Part shown: piece after piece, positions 1,563-21,905 of the stretch
Layout: the number at the start of each line of letters is the position of its first letter
How positions within the stretch are numbered: position 1 is the stretch's first letter
Assembly: GCA_030429345.1 (NCBI GenBank)
Contig: JAUIFJ010000014.1
Span: 1 to 35,988 of the forward strand
Origin: a bacterium
Lineage (GTDB): Bacteria > CAIWAD01
Reading direction: 5' to 3'
DNA length: 35,988 nucleotides
Notes under the pieces: model-generated
What the model was told of the DNA's origin: nothing
The model's input: the letters and a program-made list of their open reading frames with translations, nothing else
The model's database searches: none
Made by a program: the position numbers and the translations under genes

Positions 1563-2033
1563 GACACTTCTCCTTCTCAAATGGATTGTGGAACTGGGAC
1601 TAGAAGAAGTGTGAGAGCCGATCGGAAAACAAGAAGAAATTGCTGTTAAAAAGAAAACATTGTATCCGTTTGGTTCTTTCAGGCTCGGCTTGGTGCTAAA
1701 AGAGAACGCCCGGGAGACGTGGTGCCCGGGCGCTCAACATTGATCGGTTGCCGCGTGGGGACGCGGCGGTTTCAGGGAAAAGAGTAGCCTTGTGCAGGAA
1801 CACTTTCAACCGAATTCGGAACGACTTGGATTCCGTGCTGAACTAGCCCATCGTACTACCTGCTGGTCCAGCTGAGCCGGCAGTCCCACCCTATAGCTGT
1901 GTGTTGAAGGGGTCATCGTTGCGGGACGATGGCCCTTTCTAGTGCTTAGTAATTTTGGTCGAGTCTATGGGACCGGTATGGGACCGACGACTTTTCCGCA
2001 ACTTAAAAACTCCGTAAGTCATTCTAAAACAAA
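1563..2033. other. Gene-free stretch between orphan gene and tRNA; candidate prophage edge
   Basis: No credible coding frame. It holds a plus-strand hairpin at 1910-1935 (GGGTCATCGT pairing with ACGATGGCCC, loop TGCGGG) followed by TTTCT, which may be a terminator. At 1967-1986 there are two direct copies of ATGGGACCG spaced by two bases. The stretch abuts the 3' end of the tRNA, where tyrosine integrases often insert, so an attachment site may lie here. The partner att copy would be outside the window. Confidence 0.45.
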
Positions 2034-2107
2034 TGGGCCCAGAGGGACTCGAACCCCCGACCTAGTGATTATGAGTCACCTGCTCTAACCAACTGAGCTA
2101 TAGGCCC
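2034..2107 (-). tRNA. tRNA with CAU anticodon (probably tRNA-Ile2, otherwise elongator Met)
   Basis: On the minus strand the cloverleaf is complete: acceptor GGGCCTA/TGGGCCC with discriminator A, D arm GCTC/GAGC, anticodon stem GGTGA/TCACT with loop CTCATAA, and T arm GGGGG TTCGAGT CCCTC. CCA is not encoded. CAU can be tRNA-Met or the lysidine-modified tRNA-Ile that reads AUA. The AGGTGACTCATAATC region resembles tRNA-Ile2 more than elongator Met, but this is not decisive. It is not an initiator, since the anticodon stem lacks the three G-C pairs. No good promoter is seen close upstream. Confidence 0.93.
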
Positions 2108-2112
2108 GATGG

Positions 2113-2253
2113 CTCGAAGGCGCTGCGCGCCTTCGGCCATCTCGGGAGTTTCGCTGCGCGAAACTCTCAAGGAATTTTTGAAACGATCTCGAAGGCGCTG
2201 TGCGCCTACGGGCATCTCGAGAGTTTTGCTGCGCAAAACTCCCGAGAAGTGCG
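2113..2253. repeat. Tandem pair of double-hairpin repeats (REP-like)
   Basis: Two adjacent units (2113-2187 and 2188-2253) each start CTCGAAGGCGCTG and each fold into two hairpins with a three-base loop. In unit 1 the first stem is GAAGGCGC/GCGCCTTC with loop TGC, the second GAGTTTCGC/GCGAAACTC with loop TGC. In unit 2 the second stem is GAGTTTTGC/GCAAAACTC, a compensated base-pair change relative to unit 1. They lie immediately upstream of the tRNA on its strand. Confidence 0.8.
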
Positions 2254-2348
2254 CGATGCGTACTCGATGGCCCGATGCTCGCTGTCGGCGGCCGGGCCAA
2301 GGAGGGCCCTCAATATAGAAAGGCTTCGCCGCCTCCGCCGGGAATGTG

Positions 2349-2384
2349 AAAAACCAAAGGAGCCCGTGCACGCACGGGCTCCTT
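2349..2384 (-). terminator. Strong minus-strand terminator with no recognised gene upstream
   Basis: A perfect 12-bp stem (AAGGAGCCCGTG pairing with CACGGGCTCCTT, loop CACG) at 2357-2384 is followed on the minus strand by TTTGGTTTTT. On the plus strand there is no T tract. It would end a transcript coming from the gene-free region to the right. Confidence 0.65.
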
Positions 2385-2556
2385 CGTGAACGAAAGGCAG
2401 TTGTCCCCCGCTGACAAGGCCGCTACTCCCCCGCGAAGGCACCCATAGAGTACGCCCTTCCGGGGCTGTCGAATGTGCCGTGAGGCGAGGGGGAATTGTG
2501 AAGGGGATCACAGCCCAGCTTTGTCGGACCCATTCGGGTTCTTGAAGGCTGCTCGA

Positions 2557-2620
2557 ATCGCTATCGGGATCGCTGCGCGCTCGCCTGTGTGCGCGCAGCG
2601 ATCCCGATGGCGATAGCGAT
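2557..2620. repeat. Long inverted repeat with 24-base arms
   Basis: The left arm at 2557-2580 (ATCGCTATCGGGATCGCTGC then GCGC) is matched by 2591-2620 except for six extra bases in the right arm; the loop is ten bases. It shares the CGCTGCGC core of the double-hairpin repeats at 2113-2253. Confidence 0.8.
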
Positions 2621-2631
2621 GGAAGAGAGAT

Positions 2632-2662
2632 CCGCCCCCGGTGAGGAGTGAACCGGGGGCGG
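2632..2662. repeat. Perfect GC-rich hairpin
   Basis: An 11-bp perfect stem, CCGCCCCCGGT pairing with ACCGGGGGCGG, closes a nine-base loop GAGGAGTGA. No T tract follows on either strand, so it is not an obvious terminator. Confidence 0.7.
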
Positions 2663-2834
2663 GATCGTTGTGTTGGGCAAGCATGGAAGTCGAAGGCTGT
2701 CGCCCTGGGAGCCGGGCCACTACCGGCCCCCTGGCGATGGTTATAGGGTAGCTCGATTCCGTGGGCTGCGGAGTGTCCCGAATGGTCATGCGGGTGTGAC
2801 GGTTCGCACAGCGGATACCGCTTGCCACCACGCC

Positions 2835-2979
2835 TGTCATCCCGCGGCTTGACCGCGGGATCCTTGTCCGCGTCGAAGACTGCAGTAGTCCCAGCTACGT
2901 TTTCCCATCGCGCTACCCCTGAGGACACTTCGGCCTGCGGCCCCCTCGAAGGATCCTGCGGTCAAGCCGCGGGATGACA
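2835..2979. mobile_element. MITE-like element, copy A (145 bp)
   Basis: The ends are ~29-base inverted repeats (outer TGTCATCCCGCGGCTTGACC) with one mismatch between them. Each end is itself palindromic (CCCGCGG...CCGCGGG type). Inside the left end is TTGTCCGCGTCGAAGACTG; inside the right end is CACTTCGGCCTGCGG. The same two blocks occur, in reverse orientation, in copy B at 14665-14807. No coding capacity. This is a non-autonomous mobile or REP-type repeat; the mobilising enzyme is not in the window. Confidence 0.75.
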
Positions 2980-3440
2980 GCAATGGGTGGCGGACTCAAG
3001 GCCAAGCCGGGCTGGAACGAGAACTCCCCCACCGCACAGGCAGTGGGGGAGAAAAGGTGGGCGGGTACCCCCCCCAGGGACCCGCCCGGTGGCCACCTTC
3101 CGGTGACCGCATTTGGTTCCGTGCCCAGCGGGGCATTGCCCGGGAAGCACGGTTTCATCGCAAGCCTAGGCTACCCCCTGGTGTTCCGGACTTGAAATCC
3201 CGGGCTGTTGGCTTGCGGGTACAACAAGGCAGTCTTTGGTGGCCGGCGCGGTGGGGTTGGCCACACAAGCCGAGTGATGGTCGTCACAGGCTTCTCTTCG
3301 AGGGTGGCGGGAGCGAAAGAGTCCCTAAGGCTGAAAGCCTGTTTTCATTTGACTTGGATAGTTGCTGCGCTTTCCAGCTTTGCGATGGACACTAAGTGGC
3401 TATTGGGGCGAACAAGGTTAGGATCCTGTAAGAGCCGCGT

Positions 3441-3468
3441 TTGCGATTGTCGATTTTTCCTCTATTAT
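3441..3468 (+). promoter_or_regulatory. Sigma70-type promoter for the 3727 gene and perhaps the hpn genes
   Basis: TTGCGA at 3441-3446 and TATTAT at 3463-3468 are separated by 16 bases in a locally A+T-rich stretch. Initiation would be near 3475, giving a leader of about 250 bases before the ATG at 3727. The leader has a hairpin ACCATCGG/CCGATGGT close to the ribosome binding site. Confidence 0.55.
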
Positions 3469-3726
3469 TGGGCGCCAAATGCGCCGGAAGGGATCCCGGA
3501 TCCCGAAGCACAGGATGGCCGCCCCCAAGGCAGGAAGGGGTGGAACAAGTCTTCAAGCGAATTGGTTGATACCTGACAACGAATCCTGAACTCATCCAGA
3601 AGTTGTAACGCCGTTTTCAACAGCGAGCGAGGCCTCTGAGCCCGGCGCGGGGATCGGATGTGCTTGTAGCAAATGGATAGGCAAGGTGGACCATCGGGCT
3701 CCGATGGTTCGAAGCAAGGAGAGAAC

Positions 3727-3939
3727 ATGAGCCACTCATGCTGTCACTGCGGGAGGGAGATCCGGAAGAAAGACACCAAGTACGAGTCCGTGCAACGCGG
3801 CATGGAAGGTGTCTACCATTGGAACTGCTTCATCAAGGTGACCAAGGAAGCGAATCGTGTCGGCAGCCTGAAGCTGGAAAACAACATCCAGTCCACCGGC
3901 AACCTGCACAACAACACTCCCATGGACATGTTCTCCTAG
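3727..3939 (+). CDS. Small zinc-finger-like protein (half-LIM pattern)
   Basis: The 70-residue protein begins MSHSCCHCGREIRKK. Cys5, Cys8, His31 and Cys34 form a C-x2-C-x22-H-x2-C pattern like one zinc site of a LIM or other treble-clef finger, with YHWNCF around the second pair. The C-terminal half is polar and ends in PMDMFS, with no other motif. A very good site, AAGGAGAGAAC, precedes the ATG. It ends seven bases before hpnC and is probably cotranscribed with it. I do not recognise the family; roles in protein or nucleic-acid binding are only possibilities. Confidence 0.72.
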   Translation: MSHSCCHCGREIRKKDTKYESVQRGMEGVYHWNCFIKVTKEANRVGSLKLENNIQSTGNLHNNTPMDMFS

Positions 3940-3946
3940 GACGCAG

Positions 3947-4891
3947 GTGACTTTCAAGTCCCTTCTTCCCAGGGAATTGCAGAGGCTGGAACCCGGCATC
4001 GGGGATCCAGCCTCTTCTTTTTCCCACTGTCGCGCTTTTCTCGCGCACTACGAGAATTTCACCGTCGGCAGCCGCTTCTTTCCGAAGCGCCTCCGTCCGG
4101 CCCTGGCGGCGATCTACGCCTTTGCCCGATTCAGCGACGATCTGGCGGATTGCCCCTTGCCCTCGGAAACAGGCCTGCCCGCCGAGCAGGGCCTGGCGCT
4201 GCGGCGCGCCGTGCTCGCCCGCTGGAGGGAATTGCTGGAAGGAGAAGGCGAGGAGCGTCATCCGATCCTCCATGCCCTGGCCATATCGCGGCGCGAACAG
4301 GATCTGCCGTTGTCCCTTTTCAGCGACCTGCTGACCGCCTTTGCCCGTGATCTGGAGCAGCAGCGCTGGCAGGATCGCGAAGAACTGCTGTCCTACTGCC
4401 GCTGCAGCGCGGATCCGGTGGGGCGCCTGATGCTGCGCCTCTTCGGTTTTCGCGATCCGGAGCTGGACGCGCTCAGCGACAGCATCTGCACGGCCCTGCA
4501 GCTGGTCAACTTCTGGCAGGATTTCAGCCGCGACCTGCCGGAGGGCCGGCTCTATGTCCCGCTGGCGGATTTGCGCCGCCACGGTCTGCCCAAAGAACCA
4601 GGCGCCTTCCAGCATGCCGGTCCCGCAGCTGCGCCTTTGCTGGAGGAGCTATTCGACTGGGCCGAGGAGCTCTTCGCCCGCGGCGAGTCCTTGCCCGGAC
4701 GGATTAGCGGCCGCCTGGCCTTCGAGGTGCGGCTGTTCATCGGCGGCGGACGGGCCGTCGCGGCCCGAGGCCGCGCGCTGGGAGTGGACATTTTGCGGGT
4801 ACGGCCCCATCTTTCCCGCTTGGGAAAACTGGCCGTCGGGGCAGGGGCCCTGCGAGCCGGCCTTTTCGCGTCCCGCGCGGAAAAAGGCTAG
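3947..4891 (+). CDS. hpnC: Hydroxysqualene synthase
   Basis: In the three-enzyme HpnCDE route, this enzyme converts presqualene diphosphate to hydroxysqualene. The family hallmarks are present: HYENFTVGSRFFPKRLRP, then AIYAFARFSDDLADC with the first Asp-rich motif at residues 64-68, and a second Asp site in NFWQDFSRDLPEGRLYVP at about residues 187-204. Length is 314, close to the family norm. GTG at 3947 is the likely start; the extra ~20 residues before the conserved block are normal. It is followed after 39 bases by hpnD. Assignment over hpnD rests on the HYENFTVGS signature and gene order. Confidence 0.93.
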   Translation: MTFKSLLPRELQRLEPGIGDPASSFSHCRAFLAHYENFTVGSRFFPKRLRPALAAIYAFARFSDDLADCPLPSETGLPAEQGLALRRAVLARWRELLEGEGEERHPILHALAISRREQDLPLSLFSDLLTAFARDLEQQRWQDREELLSYCRCSADPVGRLMLRLFGFRDPELDALSDSICTALQLVNFWQDFSRDLPEGRLYVPLADLRRHGLPKEPGAFQHAGPAAAPLLEELFDWAEELFARGESLPGRISGRLAFEVRLFIGGGRAVAARGRALGVDILRVRPHLSRLGKLAVGAGALRAGLFASRAEKG

Positions 4892-4930
4892 GCAGGGGCA
4901 TTCGGCGGCCGGGCAAACAGGGGTCCGGAA

Positions 4931-5803
4931 GTGAACCAGGCACTGACAGCAGGCGCCGTAAGCCAGGCGCCCGACCTGCGCGAAGCCTATCGCGCCTGCA
5001 CGGCCTTTACCCGCGAACACGCCCGTCATTTCTACTACGCCTTCCTGATCCTCCCGCGCGCCAAGCAGCAGGCGATCCACGCCGTATACGCCTTCTGCCA
5101 GCGGGCCGACATGACCGTCGACCTGGCCGCGGATCCGCAAGAGAAGAGGCGTCGCCTGGCGGAGTTCCGCGCCCAGCTCGACAGCCTCGAGCAGAGCGCC
5201 GATCCGGTCCTGGTCGCCCTGCGCGATACGCTGCAGCGTTTCCCCATCCGCCGCGAGCTGCTCTACCAGCTGCTCGACGGCATGCAGATGGACCTGGAGT
5301 GTCACACCTATCCCGACTTCTCCAGCCTGCGCAATTACTGCTACCATGTCGCCTCCGTCGTCGGCCTGATGAGCATCGAGATCTTCGGCTACCGTGATCC
5401 ACGGGTGCGGGACTTCGCCGAGACCCTCGGCCTGGCGATGCAGCTGACCAACGTGGCCCGCGATGTCCGCGAGGATGCCGAGGAGGGCCGTGTATACCTT
5501 CCCGCCGACGAGCTTCAGCGGCATTCGCTGAGCGCGGAGGAGATCCGCCAGGGCAAGGATTCCAGCGAGTTCCGCCGCTTCATGCGCGCCTTCTGCGAGC
5601 GTTCGGACCGTTTGTACGACGAGGCCCTGGCGCTCCTGCCGGGAAGCGAGCGGCGCAACATGCGCCCGGCGCTGATCATGGCCAATCTCTACCGCAGGAT
5701 CCTGGTGGAGATCCGGCGCCGCGACTACGACGTGCAGGCCGGGAAGGTGCGCTACCCCGCCTGGCGCAAGCTGCTGATCACGGCGCGCACGCTCTTCGCG
5801 TGA
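4931..5803 (+). CDS. hpnD: Presqualene diphosphate synthase
   Basis: Condenses two farnesyl diphosphates to presqualene diphosphate, the first step of the HpnCDE squalene route. The 290-residue protein has ARHFYYAFLILPRAKQQAIH at its start, YAFCQRADMTVD (first Asp site, residues 60-64) and NVARDVREDAEEGRVYLP (second Asp site, about 173-190), all as in the trans-isoprenyl synthase fold. The usual VDDIVDE is ADMTVDL here, but both outer aspartates of the DxxxD motif remain. The start is GTG. Its stop overlaps the hpnE start (GTGA), so the two are translationally coupled. Confidence 0.93.
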   Translation: MNQALTAGAVSQAPDLREAYRACTAFTREHARHFYYAFLILPRAKQQAIHAVYAFCQRADMTVDLAADPQEKRRRLAEFRAQLDSLEQSADPVLVALRDTLQRFPIRRELLYQLLDGMQMDLECHTYPDFSSLRNYCYHVASVVGLMSIEIFGYRDPRVRDFAETLGLAMQLTNVARDVREDAEEGRVYLPADELQRHSLSAEEIRQGKDSSEFRRFMRAFCERSDRLYDEALALLPGSERRNMRPALIMANLYRRILVEIRRRDYDVQAGKVRYPAWRKLLITARTLFA

Positions 5804-7074
5804 CACGGGCCGATGTGCTCGTCGCCGGGGCCGGGCTTGCCGGCCTGGTCGCGGCCCGCGAACTGGCCCGGGCCGGTCGGCGCGTACTCCTGCTCGAGCG
5901 TCGCGCCCGGCCGGGAGGCAGCGCCTGCAGCCTGCCCTCGCCCATGGGGGAGGTGGACAACAGCTTCCACCTGATGCTGGGGTGCTACAAGGCCTGCCTG
6001 GATCTGTGTGACAAGCTTGGAAGCGCGGGACACCTGCTTCGCGCTCCGGCGGTCTACCCCTTGTCACACATGGGAAAGGCCGGAGGGGAGCTACGGCTGC
6101 ATCCCCTTGCCGGTCCCCTGGCACTTCCCTTCGCCCTGCCGGGCTGGAGCACCTATTCCCCGGCGGAGCGCCTGGGCCTGGCCCGGGACGGTCTGCGCCT
6201 GCTGAGGCATCCGCCACGCGCCGGGCAGACGGTCGGCGACTGGCTGGAGGACAAGGCGCAGGGGAAGTTGACCCGGCGGTTCTTCGACGAGTGGTCGCGG
6301 AGTGTCTTCAATGCGGAGGCGCAAGGCATGGACGCGCCGCTTTTCCTGCGCAGCCTGCGCACCATGTTCGCCTCCGCCCGCGCCGCGCAGCCGGTTCTTT
6401 GCCGGCGCCCCTTGAGAGAGGTCTTCCTGGATCCACTGCTCAGGGACATTCACGAGGCGGGCGGCGAAGTCCGCTTCGGCAGCGCCCTGAAGGCGATTCA
6501 GCGGGAAGGGCGAGGCTTTCGACTGGGAACAACGGAAGGCGATGTTGCCGCCAGCCGGCTTTTGCTTGCCCTGCCGCCGGAAGCGTTGCCGGCCCTGGCC
6601 GACGGCAGGCCCTGGCGCTCGGCGCTGCCGCCATTGCAACCGACGGGCGCGATCGTCACACTGCATGCCCGTCTACGTGGCTGGTCCGGGCAGCGATTCC
6701 TGCAGGGCTTCTTCGGCTCGCCCTGGCAATTCGCCTTTCGCACGCGGATCCAGCCGGTGGTGCAGGAAGTACAGCTCGTCGGCAGCGCCCTGGAGGGCAA
6801 CGACCGGGAGGCATGGCGCCGGAGCGCGCAGGACCTGTTCCGGCAGATGGGCTGGCAAGTGCTGGAGGAGCCCTGGCTGATCGCCCAGCAGCGGCCTTTT
6901 CCCTTGCAGAGCCCGGCCTTCCAGGCCTGCCGCCGGGGAGAAATCGAAGCAGAGCCCGGGCTGTGGCTGGCGGGCGCCTGGTGCGATCCGGACTTGCCGC
7001 TGACCCTGGAGGCGGCGGTCGGTAGCGGACAGCGGGCGGCCCGCAAGATGCTCGCCGATTCCGTCAGAGAATGA
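5800..7074 (+). CDS. hpnE: Hydroxysqualene dehydroxylase (FAD)
   Basis: Reduces hydroxysqualene to squalene, the last step of the HpnCDE route. The FAD-binding motif GAGLAGL is at residues 10-16, with the ribose-binding Glu in LLLERRARPGG. The family signature VDNSFHLMLGCY follows near residue 50, and the C-terminal GLWLAGAWCDPDLPLTLEAA closes the FAD site. At 424 residues it is of normal length. GTG at 5800 overlaps the hpnD stop. No squalene-hopene cyclase or other hopanoid gene follows, so the fate of squalene is not shown here. Confidence 0.93.
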   Translation: MTRADVLVAGAGLAGLVAARELARAGRRVLLLERRARPGGSACSLPSPMGEVDNSFHLMLGCYKACLDLCDKLGSAGHLLRAPAVYPLSHMGKAGGELRLHPLAGPLALPFALPGWSTYSPAERLGLARDGLRLLRHPPRAGQTVGDWLEDKAQGKLTRRFFDEWSRSVFNAEAQGMDAPLFLRSLRTMFASARAAQPVLCRRPLREVFLDPLLRDIHEAGGEVRFGSALKAIQREGRGFRLGTTEGDVAASRLLLALPPEALPALADGRPWRSALPPLQPTGAIVTLHARLRGWSGQRFLQGFFGSPWQFAFRTRIQPVVQEVQLVGSALEGNDREAWRRSAQDLFRQMGWQVLEEPWLIAQQRPFPLQSPAFQACRRGEIEAEPGLWLAGAWCDPDLPLTLEAAVGSGQRAARKMLADSVRE

Positions 7075-18182: not shown

Positions 18183-18293
18183 TCCCCTTTCCCTTGTGTG
18201 GTCCACCAGTCGGCCCTCTGCGGGAATTTTCCATTCGCAGCAATAGGTTTGTCTATTCGAAGAGGGTAGAGCAATCGACCTAAGTGGTTGAAA

Positions 18294-18347
18294 TCCAGCC
18301 ACCAGTTGACATGGCTGGATCGAAAATTGTATTGTGTCGAATGCAAT
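18294..18347 (+). promoter_or_regulatory. Promoter of the MarR operon with two overlapping inverted repeats
   Basis: TTGACA (18306-18311) and TATTGT (18330-18335) form a promoter with an 18-base spacer. TCCAGCCA (18294-18301) and TGGCTGGA (18312-18319) are a perfect inverted repeat around the -35. ATTGTATT (18326-18333) and AATGCAAT (18340-18347) form a second, 7 of 8 matched, over the -10 and start codon. MarR proteins often repress their own operons from such sites. Confidence 0.62.
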
Positions 18348-18882
18348 GAAAAATTCCCCAATCAACCCGGATACTCCGGACCGCGTCCTGGTGGCGATCC
18401 GCCAGATCCACCGCGCCATCGACCTGCATTCCCGCAAGCTGATCCAGGAGCACGGCCTGACCGTGCCGCAGCTGCTCGTGCTCAAGGAAGCCCTGCGACA
18501 CCCGGGTTCGAGCGTCGGCCGCCTGGCCGAACGGGTCCAGCTGAGCCAGGGCACGGTGACACAGATCCTGACCCGCCTCGAACAGCGCGGCATGCTGCTG
18601 CGCACACGCAGCGACGAGGACCGGCGCCGCGTGGTGGTGACGGTCACGCCCCTGGGCGTTTCCGTGCTCGACCGCGCTCCCATGCCTCTGCATGACCGCT
18701 TCCTGCACTCCTTCGACAGCCTGGAGGAGTGGGAGCAGACCTTCCTGCTTTCGGCCCTGCAGCGTGTAGCGCGCATGATGGGCGCCGGCGGCATGGATGT
18801 CGCGCCCCTGCTGGCGCCGGGCGAGATTCGCGAACCGGGATCGACGGAGACCGAAGGAGAGGAAATCTGTGATGCAACCTGA
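18346..18882 (+). CDS. MarR-family transcriptional regulator
   Basis: The 178-residue regulator has the winged-helix pattern: LTVPQLLVLKEALRHPGSSV, then recognition region LAERVQLSQGTVTQILTRLEQRGML and the wing RTRSDEDRRRVVVTVTPLG, which carries the conserved DxRxxR-type Arg. Flanking helices would form the dimer. ATG at 18346 is favoured; a GTG at 18334 is also in frame but lies in the -10 region. There is no Shine-Dalgarno and the predicted transcription start is only a few bases upstream, so the message may be leaderless. The 3' end overlaps the GNAT gene by 11 bases. Confidence 0.93.
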   Translation: MKNSPINPDTPDRVLVAIRQIHRAIDLHSRKLIQEHGLTVPQLLVLKEALRHPGSSVGRLAERVQLSQGTVTQILTRLEQRGMLLRTRSDEDRRRVVVTVTPLGVSVLDRAPMPLHDRFLHSFDSLEEWEQTFLLSALQRVARMMGAGGMDVAPLLAPGEIREPGSTETEGEEICDAT

Positions 18883-19312
18883 ATTCTGCATCGTGCGCGG
18901 GAACGACGGATTCCCCGACTGGATCACGCGGGAGGAGGTCGTGCGCCTCTTCCACGAAACGATGAAACCCTACGAGGACACGCCGACGGATGTCGGCCGC
19001 GCCCTCGACTATGCCTTCTCGAAAGAGCGGGGCGGATTCCTGGCCCTCTGCCGCCTGGAAGACAAGTGGGCAGGCCAGCTGCTGATGCTCGACACGGGCA
19101 TGGGCGGCTACATTCCCGAACACATCCTGCTCTTCGTCACAGTCTCGCCGGAAATGCGCGGAAAGGGAATCGGCCGCAAGCTGATCGAGCACTGCATCGA
19201 TCTTTGCCCGGGCGACGTCAAGTTGCACGTGGAGTACGACAATCCGGCCAAGCGCCTCTATGAGCGGGTAGGCTTCACGACCGATTACGCGGAAATGAGG
19301 TTCAAGAAGTGA
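18872..19312 (+). CDS. GNAT-family N-acetyltransferase
   Basis: The 146-residue protein transfers acetyl from acetyl-CoA to an amine. The acetyl-CoA motif A is clear in LLFVTVSPEMRGKGIGRKLIEHC (about residues 87-109, with the RGKGIG loop), followed by motif B in VEYDNPAKRLYERVGF. Start ATG at 18872 has GAAGGAGAGG upstream, inside the marR end. Its stop overlaps the racemase start (GTGA). A substrate related to the racemase, for example a D-amino acid or ornithine, is an inference from the tight coupling. Confidence 0.92.
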   Translation: MQPEFCIVRGNDGFPDWITREEVVRLFHETMKPYEDTPTDVGRALDYAFSKERGGFLALCRLEDKWAGQLLMLDTGMGGYIPEHILLFVTVSPEMRGKGIGRKLIEHCIDLCPGDVKLHVEYDNPAKRLYERVGFTTDYAEMRFKK

Positions 19313-20478
19313 ATCGTCTCGTAATCGATCTGGACCGCATGCTGCACAACATCCAGACCGTCGACACCTGGATGAAGATGCATGACGCCTCGTGGACCTT
19401 CGTGACCAAGGCGCTCTGCGGACACGCCGAGACCCTGCGCGCCCTGCAGGCGCTGGGCGTACGCTCGATGGCCGATTCGCGCATCGAGAACCTGCAGGTC
19501 ATCGACCGCATGGCGGAGGATTTCGAGACCTGGTACCTGCGCCTGCCCAACCTCTCCGAACTGGAAACGATCCTCGCCCTTACGGACGTGAGCCTGAATT
19601 CCGAATTGCGGATTATTCGCGAGATCAACCGCGTCTCGGGCGAACTGGGAAAAACGCACCGCGTGATCATCATGATCGAGCTCGGGGACCTGCGCGAGGG
19701 CATCCTGCCCGGCAACCTGATCGAGTTCTATGACCAGATCTTCCGCCTGGAACACATCGAGGTCGTCGGCATCGGCGCCAATATCGGCTGCCTGGCGGGT
19801 GTCGTACCCAGCGTCGACCAGCTGATGCAGCTTGTGCTCTACAAGGAGCTGCTCGAGCTGAAGTTCAAGCGCGAACTGCCGATGATCTCCGCCGGATCTT
19901 CTTCCGTGCTGCCCATGCTCCTGGAGGGGCGTGTACCGAAATCGATCAATCATTTCCGCATCGGGGAAGCGGTCCTGCTGGGTACCGACCTGATCAACGG
20001 GGGCCTGCTCAAGGGTCTTCGGGACGATGTCTTCACGCTGGAGGCGGAAATCGTCGAGATCAAGGAGAAGAGCCTCATACCGCTGGGCGAGACGACCTCG
20101 ATGACGCCCTTCGAGGTACTCGACGAGTCCGACTACACCCCCGGCCAGCGAGGCTATCGGGCGATTATCACTGTAGGACAGCTGGACACGAACATCGCCG
20201 GACTGACCCCGGTCGATACGCGTTTCCAGATCGCCGGCGCGAGCAGCGATGTGGCGGTGGTCAACCTGGGAGACAACGACCGCCAGCTGCGCATCGGCGA
20301 TTCGATCCGCTTCCGTCCCGACTACGGGGCTCTGGTGCGCCTGATGATGGACCGCTACATCGAGAAGGTTGTCACACCGGAAATCCGCTCCTTCAGCCAG
20401 GGCCTGGCCCCCTCCGACGAAGTCGAAGTGCCGCCGGCCATCACCCCGCTGGACGAGCAGGGAAGCGAAGCCAGCTGA
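19309..20478 (+). CDS. Fold-III PLP racemase, ornithine/alanine racemase-like
   Basis: The 389-residue protein belongs to the alanine-racemase N-terminal barrel group. The PLP Lys is Lys34 in FVTKALCGH. GASSDVAVVNLGD, LTPVDTRFQIAG and the final RFRPDYGALVRLMM strongly resemble the ornithine racemase (Orr) branch, which interconverts L- and D-ornithine or other amino acids. The GTG start overlaps the GNAT stop, and its own stop overlaps the symporter start (TGATG). No ornithine aminomutase genes are present, so the Orr fermentation pathway is not implied. Amino-acid specificity unknown. The last ~35 residues are an unusual Pro/Glu-rich tail. Confidence 0.86.
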   Translation: MNRLVIDLDRMLHNIQTVDTWMKMHDASWTFVTKALCGHAETLRALQALGVRSMADSRIENLQVIDRMAEDFETWYLRLPNLSELETILALTDVSLNSELRIIREINRVSGELGKTHRVIIMIELGDLREGILPGNLIEFYDQIFRLEHIEVVGIGANIGCLAGVVPSVDQLMQLVLYKELLELKFKRELPMISAGSSSVLPMLLEGRVPKSINHFRIGEAVLLGTDLINGGLLKGLRDDVFTLEAEIVEIKEKSLIPLGETTSMTPFEVLDESDYTPGQRGYRAIITVGQLDTNIAGLTPVDTRFQIAGASSDVAVVNLGDNDRQLRIGDSIRFRPDYGALVRLMMDRYIEKVVTPEIRSFSQGLAPSDEVEVPPAITPLDEQGSEAS

Positions 20479-21905
20479 TGTCGGAGAACACGATCCTCTG
20501 GGGCATCATCGTCGCCTACGTGTCCTTCATCTTCATCAAGGGCGTGCTGCAGAGCCGGCGCATCCACGACTCGGACGACTACCTCGTCGCCGGACGCAAC
20601 GTGGATTGGCTGCTGCTCTTCACGACCCTGGGCGCGACGGTGATCGGCGGAGGCTACTCGGTGGGCGCGGTCGGCCGCACCTACGACTGGGGCCTGCTGA
20701 TGGTGCTGGTCTCGGTCGGCGGGTACCTGCATTTCGTCTTTTCCGGACTGGTGGTCGCGCCGCAGTTCCGCGAGGCCGAGTTGTATACGGTGGCCGGCTG
20801 GTTCCGCGAGCGCTTCGACGAACGCAGCCGCTCCCTGGCCATGGTGCTCTCGATCATCTTCTCGGTCTTCATCGTCGCCGCGCAGATCGCCGCCATCGGC
20901 AGCGTGCTCGCATCGCTGCTGGGCGAGCACCTGCAGAACGAGAACCTGCTGACCTGGGCGATCCTGCTCGGCGGGCTGGTGGTCATCGTCTACAGCACGG
21001 CGGGCGGCCTGATGGCCGTGATCCATACGGATGTCTACCAGTTCGTCGTGCTGATCTTCGGCTTCCTGCTGACCCTGGCCTTCATCCTGCCCGACATGCT
21101 GTCTCACCTGCCGGAGGTGAAGGCCAGCCTGCCCGAGGAGTTCCTGATGCCGACGGGCGGCAAGGGCTGGCTGTTCCTGCTGACGACCTTCCTGGCCTTC
21201 CTGCTGGGGGAGACTTTCGCCCCGGGCTACGCCACACGCTATTGCATCGGCAAGGATGTGCGGGAGACGAAGAAGGGCATCGCCGGAGTGGGCCTCGCGC
21301 TCAGCCTGACCTTTCCCTTCATCATCCTGGTCATCGCCGTCTACGCGCGCTACCACTTTCCCGACATCGAGCCGCAATACGCCTTGTCGCACGTGATCTT
21401 CAACCTGCATAATCCCGTCATCGCCGGACTGATGATCGCCGCCCTGCTCAGCGCGGTAATGTCCTCGGCGGACTCGGGCCTCAACAGCTCGACGACGATC
21501 TTCTGCAAGGACCTTTTCGAGGACCAGTTGGGCCTGACCGGCTGGAGCGAAGAGAAGAAGCTGCGCGTGGCGCGACGGCTGACGCTGGTTCTGGGCAGCC
21601 TGTCCACGCTGATCGCCGTGCTCTGGCCGGACATCATCGACCTGCTGCTGTTCACCTATCACATCTGGGCTCCGGCGATCATCCTGCCGGTCGTGCTCGG
21701 TGCGCTCGATCGCCGCAAAAGGCCCGGACAGGACACGGCCATCTTCTGGACCATGCTGCTGTCCGTGCTTGCGACCCTGGTCTACCGCATGAGCGACGCG
21801 GCGGAGACCCTGGACCCGGCGGTCTTCGGGGTGCTGCTCTCGATCGCGATCTACCTGCCGCTGGCCGCCTTCCTCGGCCGATCCGCGAAAGGAGAGGCCT
21901 CCTAG
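20478..21905 (+). CDS. Sodium:solute symporter (SSS family)
   Basis: The 475-residue membrane protein has about twelve to thirteen helices. SSS features: SDDYLVAGRNVDWLLLFTTLGATVIGGG at helices 1-2, where the first sodium site lies, YSTAGGLMAVIHTDVYQF in the middle (the classic SSS signature), and LLSAVMSSADSGLNSSTTIF for helix 8 with the Ser/Thr pair of the second sodium site. Substrates in the family include amino acids, sugars and carboxylates. Last gene of the MarR operon and coupled to the racemase, which favours an amino acid. It converges on the MBL-fold gene with one base between stops and no terminator. Confidence 0.92.
   Translation: MSENTILWGIIVAYVSFIFIKGVLQSRRIHDSDDYLVAGRNVDWLLLFTTLGATVIGGGYSVGAVGRTYDWGLLMVLVSVGGYLHFVFSGLVVAPQFREAELYTVAGWFRERFDERSRSLAMVLSIIFSVFIVAAQIAAIGSVLASLLGEHLQNENLLTWAILLGGLVVIVYSTAGGLMAVIHTDVYQFVVLIFGFLLTLAFILPDMLSHLPEVKASLPEEFLMPTGGKGWLFLLTTFLAFLLGETFAPGYATRYCIGKDVRETKKGIAGVGLALSLTFPFIILVIAVYARYHFPDIEPQYALSHVIFNLHNPVIAGLMIAALLSAVMSSADSGLNSSTTIFCKDLFEDQLGLTGWSEEKKLRVARRLTLVLGSLSTLIAVLWPDIIDLLLFTYHIWAPAIILPVVLGALDRRKRPGQDTAIFWTMLLSVLATLVYRMSDAAETLDPAVFGVLLSIAIYLPLAAFLGRSAKGEAS

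What the first reader, a model, noticed from the sequence alone, without database searches (positions are those of the whole stretch)
18346..21905. Regulated acetyltransferase-racemase-symporter operon: candidate undescribed amino-acid system
MarR, GNAT, an Orr-like fold-III racemase and an SSS carrier overlap at every junction, so they are made together. A plausible scheme is sodium-driven uptake of an amino acid, stereo-inversion and N-acetylation, for D-amino-acid detoxification or use, with MarR sensing the substrate. Known Orr operons encode ornithine fermentation enzymes, which are absent.
Basis: inference. Interest (0 to 1): 0.62.

Follow-up and report, generated by a model that had tools for sequence, protein, structure and literature searches.

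The report
Racemase–acetyltransferase gene pair with symporter
A four-gene bacterial operon encodes a regulator, an acetyl-adding enzyme, an enzyme that flips amino acids between mirror-image forms, and a sodium-driven importer; the two enzymes travel together in about 40 genomes from several uncultured phyla, which points to an undescribed way of handling D-amino acids.

Summary
The operon is real: MarR, GNAT, an Orr-like PLP racemase and an SSS symporter overlap at all three junctions, behind one promoter-like site. The same four-gene order recurs in six genomes of another phylum. The GNAT lies directly upstream of the racemase in 41 of 42 loci (the other starts inside the racemase), usually with a 4-nt overlap, and these racemases form one clade with full support. 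The symporter and MarR are optional. A YxeP-like M20 deacylase and a second, Alr-type racemase recur instead or in addition. It is not an ornithine-fermentation Orr: the family score is far below cut-off and OraE is absent from the whole genome. Elsewhere the Orr family is paired with D-ornithine mutase, with a D-amino-acid dehydrogenase in an arginine-degradation cluster, or (a separate clade, also co-translated) with a DgcN/DUF1611 N-acetyltransferase. By analogy I infer that the GNAT N-acetylates the D-amino acid made by the racemase, probably a basic one. Substrate and direction are not shown. A new variant of a known kind.

The parts
18293..18320 (.). inverted repeat ATCCAGCCA-N10-TGGCTGGAT overlapping the -35 box; candidate MarR operator
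   Evidence: found in 0.34% of first-order shuffles; the sequence is not conserved upstream of the MarR orthologues, so a weak candidate
18306..18335 (+). sigma-70-like promoter TTGACA-N18-TATTGT
   Evidence: 10 of 12 matches; consensus match only
18346..18882 (+). MarR-family regulator (178 aa; GTG start at 18334 possible)
   Evidence: Pfam PF01047 4e-15; orthologues upstream of GNAT-Rac-SSS in L101, L102, L103, L105, L106, L108 (47-55% id)
18872..19312 (+). GNAT N-acetyltransferase (146 aa), partner of the racemase
   Evidence: Pfam PF00583; AlphaFold2 pLDDT 87, GNAT fold; upstream of the racemase in 41 of 42 loci
19309..20478 (+). Orr-like fold-III PLP amino-acid racemase (389 aa), GTG start overlapping the GNAT stop by 4 nt
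   Evidence: Pfam PF01168, NCBIfam racem_Orr 305 bits, cut-off 480; AlphaFold2 pLDDT 85, Bar/Lyr/VanTg/BsrV/Alr fold; family-wide invariants K34, N158, C161, R217, K252, K254 kept
20478..21905 (+). SSS-family sodium:solute symporter (475 aa), 1-nt overlap with the racemase
   Evidence: Pfam PF00474 5e-42; best solved relatives SiaT, CHT1, vSGLT; 57-73% identical copies at other GNAT-Rac loci

Best explanation
The operon's core is a two-enzyme cassette: an amino-acid racemase of the Orr family, co-translated with a GNAT that N-acetylates the same amino acid, most likely its D-enantiomer. Substrate is brought in by the sodium symporter, the racemase interconverts L and D forms, the GNAT pulls the D form off as N-acetyl-D-amino acid, and MarR switches the operon on when substrate is present. 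Where the M20 deacylase and the Alr-type racemase are also present, the acetyl group can be removed again and the free amino acid returned to metabolism. Shown: gene content, overlaps, conservation, the clade, fold, kept PLP lysine and family invariants. Inferred: that both enzymes use the same substrate, that the GNAT takes the D form, that the substrate is a basic amino acid (Orn/Lys/Arg type), the direction of flux, and the MarR signal.
For: GNAT immediately upstream of the racemase in 41 of 42 loci, 28 with exactly a 4-nt overlap; the one exception begins inside the racemase. In one phylum, 9 of 39 genomes hold the GNAT; 8 are next to the racemase and the ninth ends 85 nt from a contig end. 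The linked racemases are one clade (100/100; 40 rows including cultured Persicobacter). Independent parallel: a second clade (97 SH-aLRT) is co-translated with DUF1611/DgcN-family N-acetyltransferases in Vibrio, roseobacters and two uncultured phyla; DgcN is a D-glutamate N-acetyltransferase (EC 2.3.1.312, PMC11747546; that DgcN is this family is NCBIfam's naming). Other Orr-family partners also use D or basic amino acids: OraE (PMC8803604), D-amino-acid dehydrogenase plus 2-ketoarginine decarboxylase with a racemase-arginase fusion in Shinella, Orn/Arg decarboxylase-like gene in Salmonella. argBDCJ follow the cassette in L009. L104 carries Rac-SSS-M20-Alr in one run.
Against: No activity is shown for either enzyme. 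GNAT structure hits are generic. The SSS and MarR are missing from most GNAT-Rac loci, so uptake and regulation are not part of the core. A racemase alone would already convert a D-amino acid, so the purpose of acetylation is unexplained. The window genome has no match to the M20 query used. One relative (L108) keeps GNAT, MarR and SSS but only the C-terminal third of the racemase.
Confidence: 0.5

Rival explanations
1. The cassette is biosynthetic: the racemase and GNAT, with an amino-acid ligase and Alr encoded elsewhere, build an N-acetylated D-amino acid or small peptide (osmolyte, cell-wall or secreted compound), and the symporter supplies the precursor or recovers the product.
For: In L015/L100 the cassette and an SSS are followed in one run by an ATP-grasp protein, a conserved unknown 661-aa protein, Alr and the start of an M20. 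The same ATP-grasp/unknown/Alr triad lies unlinked in the window's own genome (contig C46; 60, 50 and 57% id), and that ATP-grasp protein's best solved relative is an L-amino acid ligase.
Against: The ligase triad was seen next to the cassette in one lineage only; the M20 deacylase and importer fit scavenging better; MarR control of an importer is typical of uptake (general knowledge).
Confidence: 0.2
2. A variant of Orr ornithine fermentation: the racemase makes D-ornithine for an aminomutase encoded elsewhere.
For: Closest named family is ornithine racemase (305 bits); family invariants shared.
Against: Below the curated cut-off (305 vs 480); no OraE in the window genome or in 19 other cassette genomes beyond short, weak partial matches in three (positive control matched); separate clade.
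Confidence: 0.05
3. The GNAT is a protein-modifying regulator (for example it acetylates the racemase lysine or another protein), and the pair is a regulated racemase rather than a two-step pathway.
For: GNATs often modify proteins; fold search returns GCN5 and RimI among the hits; strict co-translation fits an enzyme-modifier pair.
Against: The parallel DgcN/DUF1611 pairing is with a family known for a free D-amino acid; an M20 deacylase recurs next to the pair. A same-type GNAT fused to another amino-acid PLP enzyme in Acetoanaerobium fits either reading.
Confidence: 0.12
4. The racemase is a broad-spectrum or alanine racemase for wall or D-Ala catabolism, and the GNAT detoxifies stray D-amino acids without pathway coupling.
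For: Best structural matches include broad-specificity racemases, VanTg and Alr; racemases of the DUF1611 clade are in two cases fused to a VanX-like D-Ala-D-Ala dipeptidase.
Against: The genome already has three Alr-type genes elsewhere; sequence places it in the Orr family, whose other partners handle basic amino acids.
Confidence: 0.13

Closest known systems
Ornithine racemase Orr (NCBIfam NF040742) of the oxidative ornithine pathway
   Same: Same PLP fold-III family, 31-38% identity to Bacillota members, shared invariants including the PLP lysine
   Different: Below cut-off; own clade; no OraE in the genome; coupled to a GNAT and often to SSS, M20 or Alr instead
DgcN-DgcA D-glutamate pathway (DUF1611 N-acetyltransferase plus N-acetyl-D-glutamate racemase)
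   Same: Couples N-acetylation of an amino acid with racemisation
   Different: DgcN is unrelated to GNAT; DgcA (from general knowledge an enolase-superfamily enzyme) acts on the N-acetyl form, whereas a PLP racemase needs the free amine
DUF1611-Orr-like racemase pairs in Vibrio, roseobacters and two uncultured phyla (found here)
   Same: N-acetyltransferase gene overlapping an Orr-family racemase gene
   Different: Non-homologous acetyltransferase and separate racemase clade; no MarR or SSS
Bacillus yxe / S-(2-succino)cysteine route (YxeL GNAT, YxeP M20 deacetylase; PMC9706529)
   Same: Acetylate, convert, deacetylate logic; the recurring M20 is closest to YxeP among solved structures
   Different: No monooxygenase or lyase; a racemase is the converting enzyme; M20 is absent from the window operon
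Broad-spectrum racemases Bar, Lyr, BsrV and VanTg
   Same: Two-domain fold of the AlphaFold2 model
   Different: 13-19% identity; C-terminal domain not matched by PF00842

Membership tests
Ornithine racemase Orr | Curated NCBIfam NF040742 score of 480 bits | tested here: not met
   305 bits
Ornithine racemase Orr | PLP fold III with family-invariant residues | tested here: met
   K34, N158, C161, R217, K252, K254 and others shared; fold
Ornithine racemase Orr | Linked to D-ornithine aminomutase OraSE / Ord / Ort | tested here: not met
   OraE absent from the own genome, control matched; Ord and Ort not searched separately
Ornithine racemase Orr | Racemises ornithine | not testable with these tools
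   needs enzyme assay
Alanine racemase Alr (TIGR00492) | Family model and Ala_racemase_C domain (PF00842) | tested here: not met
   only PF01168 and racem_Orr match
GNAT superfamily | Acetyltransf_1 domain and fold | tested here: met
RimI and other named GNAT equivalogs | Curated cut-offs | tested here: not met
   rimI 30.7 bits, cut-off 86
SSS sodium:solute symporter family | PF00474 | tested here: met
PutP / PanF equivalogs | Curated cut-offs | tested here: not met
   83 of 515 and 78 of 328 bits
DgcN-DgcA D-glutamate pathway | DUF1611 N-acetyltransferase in the operon | tested here: not met
   the operon has a GNAT instead; DUF1611 only in the other clade
DgcN-DgcA D-glutamate pathway | DgcA N-acetyl-D-glutamate racemase | not tested
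   no genome-wide search made; not in the operon

The most novel reading that the evidence does not exclude
A previously undescribed D-amino-acid route in which an Orr-family racemase and a dedicated D-amino-acid N-acetyltransferase form an obligate pair, assembled at least twice with unrelated acetyltransferases (GNAT and DUF1611), and extended in some phyla into a larger system with symporter, amino-acid ligase, second racemase, M20 deacylase and an unknown 661-aa protein.
Probability: 0.35. Interest if true: 0.7.

Novelty: new variant of a known kind. Interest (0 to 1): 0.52.

Why it matters
D-amino acids are a large, slowly used pool in sediments and from cell walls, and few routes for them are known outside cultured groups. 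A strictly paired racemase and N-acetyltransferase in many uncultured phyla, with a parallel pairing in Vibrio and roseobacters, would be a specific and testable route. It would also give a function to an unassigned GNAT subfamily and to the poorly described DUF1611-racemase pairs.

Tried and rejected
Solved relatives of the racemase by sequence: none at E<=0.1. GNAT fold search: generic hits, no substrate hint. A 22-bp near-palindrome over the MarR start was derived from the sequence itself and is not evidence. No shared operator sequence was recognised upstream of the MarR orthologues. Specificity-determining positions between GNAT-linked racemases and true Orr: only three positions are fixed differently (E124/D, P134/E, V317/I), too few to name a substrate. 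Profile alignment with Alr to place the second catalytic base covered only the N-terminal domain. A class-III aminotransferase next to the cassette in L102 and another next to an Alr in the own genome are only 23% identical, so not treated as the same part. Literature: two searches pairing 'ornithine racemase' with acetyltransferase or GNAT found nothing relevant; the library lacks most subscription papers, so absence is weak evidence of novelty.

Full report
OBSERVATION. The four ORFs lie at the stated coordinates on the + strand and overlap by 11, 4 and 1 nt. Pfam assigns MarR, GNAT, Ala_racemase_N and SSF. A promoter-like site (18306-18335) precedes MarR and no terminator-like site was found up to 22100. 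Flanking genes look unrelated: a SnoaL/DUF4440 protein upstream, and a metallo-hydrolase on the other strand and a TetR regulator downstream.

GENOME. The window is contig C51 of a 98%-complete 4.2-Mb genome in a phylum of which only five genomes are held; the other four lack the racemase. The genome carries four other fold-III genes: three Alr-type (one housekeeping-like) and a fourth, shorter hit on C13 that was not examined.

CONSERVATION. A scan of 84,980 species genomes returned 30 relatives of the racemase; the 11 closest (55-65% identity: WOR-3, UBP7, Eisenbacteria, Effluviviaceae, Fermentibacteria, unnamed MAGs) all carry the same GNAT (47-62%) directly upstream, while Bacillota Orr genes (31-38%) do not. 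Searching the phyla of those relatives gave more loci. In 42 loci examined, including the window, the GNAT is directly upstream on the same strand in 41; the exception starts inside the racemase. The overlap is exactly 4 nt in 28 and 8 nt in five. A converse search for the GNAT in one phylum found it in 9 of 39 genomes: eight at racemase loci, one 85 nt from a contig end.

WIDER ANATOMY. MarR-GNAT-Rac-SSS in the window's order occurs in L101, L102, L103, L105, L106 and L108, all in another phylum, with 47-55, 54-64, 59-62 and 59-73% identity; in L108 the racemase is internally deleted, so its identity is not counted. Window-type SSS genes are near 10 cassettes; a different SSS (25-27% identity) is beside L009 and L015/L100. 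An M20 amidohydrolase (nine loci) and an Alr-type racemase (eleven loci) recur. In L104 Rac-SSS-M20-Alr form one run with overlaps between SSS, M20 and Alr. The M20 matches TIGR01891 above cut-off, with YxeP as nearest solved relative. WOR-3 and Fermentibacteria cassettes mostly stand alone. In L009 the cassette is followed by argB-argD-argC-argJ (argC named by eye).

A SPLIT SYSTEM. In L015/L100 the run is GNAT-Rac-SSS-ATP-grasp-unknown(661 aa)-Alr-M20 (start only, 46% identity over 52 aa). The window's genome has the ATP-grasp/unknown/Alr triad at 60, 50 and 57% identity on contig C46. That ATP-grasp protein's best solved relative is an L-amino acid ligase; the unknown has no Pfam match. Whether the triad works with the window operon is not shown.

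RACEMASE. AlphaFold2 (16-row alignment, pLDDT 85) gives the two-domain fold of Bar, lysine racemase, VanTg, BsrV and Alr, too generic to name the substrate. Residues invariant across the Orr family are kept. The racem_Orr cut-off is not met, and OraE is absent from the window genome and 19 cassette genomes, apart from short weak partial matches in three, while the control genome matched fully. The protein is Orr-like, not Orr.

PARTNERS OF THE FAMILY. Two trees place all GNAT-linked racemases in one clade (100/100; 100 SH-aLRT with Persicobacter). Cultured Persicobacter JZB09 carries the GNAT (35%) and racemase (39%) in the same direction, about 330 bp apart. Racemases linked to DUF1611 proteins form another clade (97): in Vibrio and roseobacter plasmids the DUF1611 gene overlaps the racemase gene by 4 nt, and in L095/L108/L109 a DUF1611 protein related to DgcN (155-173 bits, cut-off 480) overlaps a racemase that in two cases is fused to a VanX-like dipeptidase. 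In Shinella the racemase is fused to an arginase-family domain beside a D-amino acid dehydrogenase and 2-ketoarginine decarboxylase. In true Orr operons OraE precedes (named by eye and by the pathway in PMC8803604).

MECHANISM. Characterised or annotated partners of the family consume the D-enantiomer or a basic amino acid, so the GNAT is most simply a D-amino-acid N-acetyltransferase acting on the racemase's product, with SSS import and MarR control in the window's version. This is inference from gene partnership. It does not explain why acetylation is needed; recurring M20 genes suggest reversible protection (as in the yxe route, PMC9706529), and the ligase triad suggests a biosynthetic alternative.

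VERDICT. The finding is best restated as a conserved GNAT-racemase cassette with optional MarR, SSS, M20 and Alr, a new variant of the known acetyltransferase-plus-racemase theme.

Noticed in passing
L123 (G000:C46:82000-93500) 1870-6292: ATP-grasp amino-acid-ligase-like protein, an unknown ~660-aa protein (conserved PTCQ motif) and Alr in one run in the window's own genome; the same triad is joined to GNAT-Rac-SSS in L015/L100.
   Followed up: partly
L108 5372-8181, L109 5403-8341, L095 4994-7137: Orr-family racemase overlapping a DgcN/DUF1611-type gene; in L108 and L109 the racemase is fused to a VanX-like M15 dipeptidase.
   Followed up: yes
L108 12819-13229: The GNAT-linked racemase is reduced in frame to its C-terminal third while MarR, GNAT and SSS are intact; assembly error or real deletion not decided.
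   Followed up: no
L132 8116-9393 (Acetoanaerobium noterae): The same kind of GNAT (29% id) is the C-terminal part of a PALP-family PLP protein, a natural fusion of a GNAT and an amino-acid PLP enzyme.
   Followed up: partly
L125 6989-8776 (Shinella), L130 (Sinorhizobium): Orr-family racemase fused to an arginase-family domain in an arginine-degradation cluster with D-amino acid dehydrogenase.
   Followed up: partly
L012 213-1052, L014 2202-3029, L088 1415-2242, L112 3578-4351: A 250-280-aa protein family without Pfam match recurs near the cassette in several phyla (58-75% id to L012).
   Followed up: no
window 3947-7074: Three consecutive genes that by eye look like squalene/hopanoid synthesis (HpnC, HpnD, HpnE type); not checked with a profile.
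   Followed up: no
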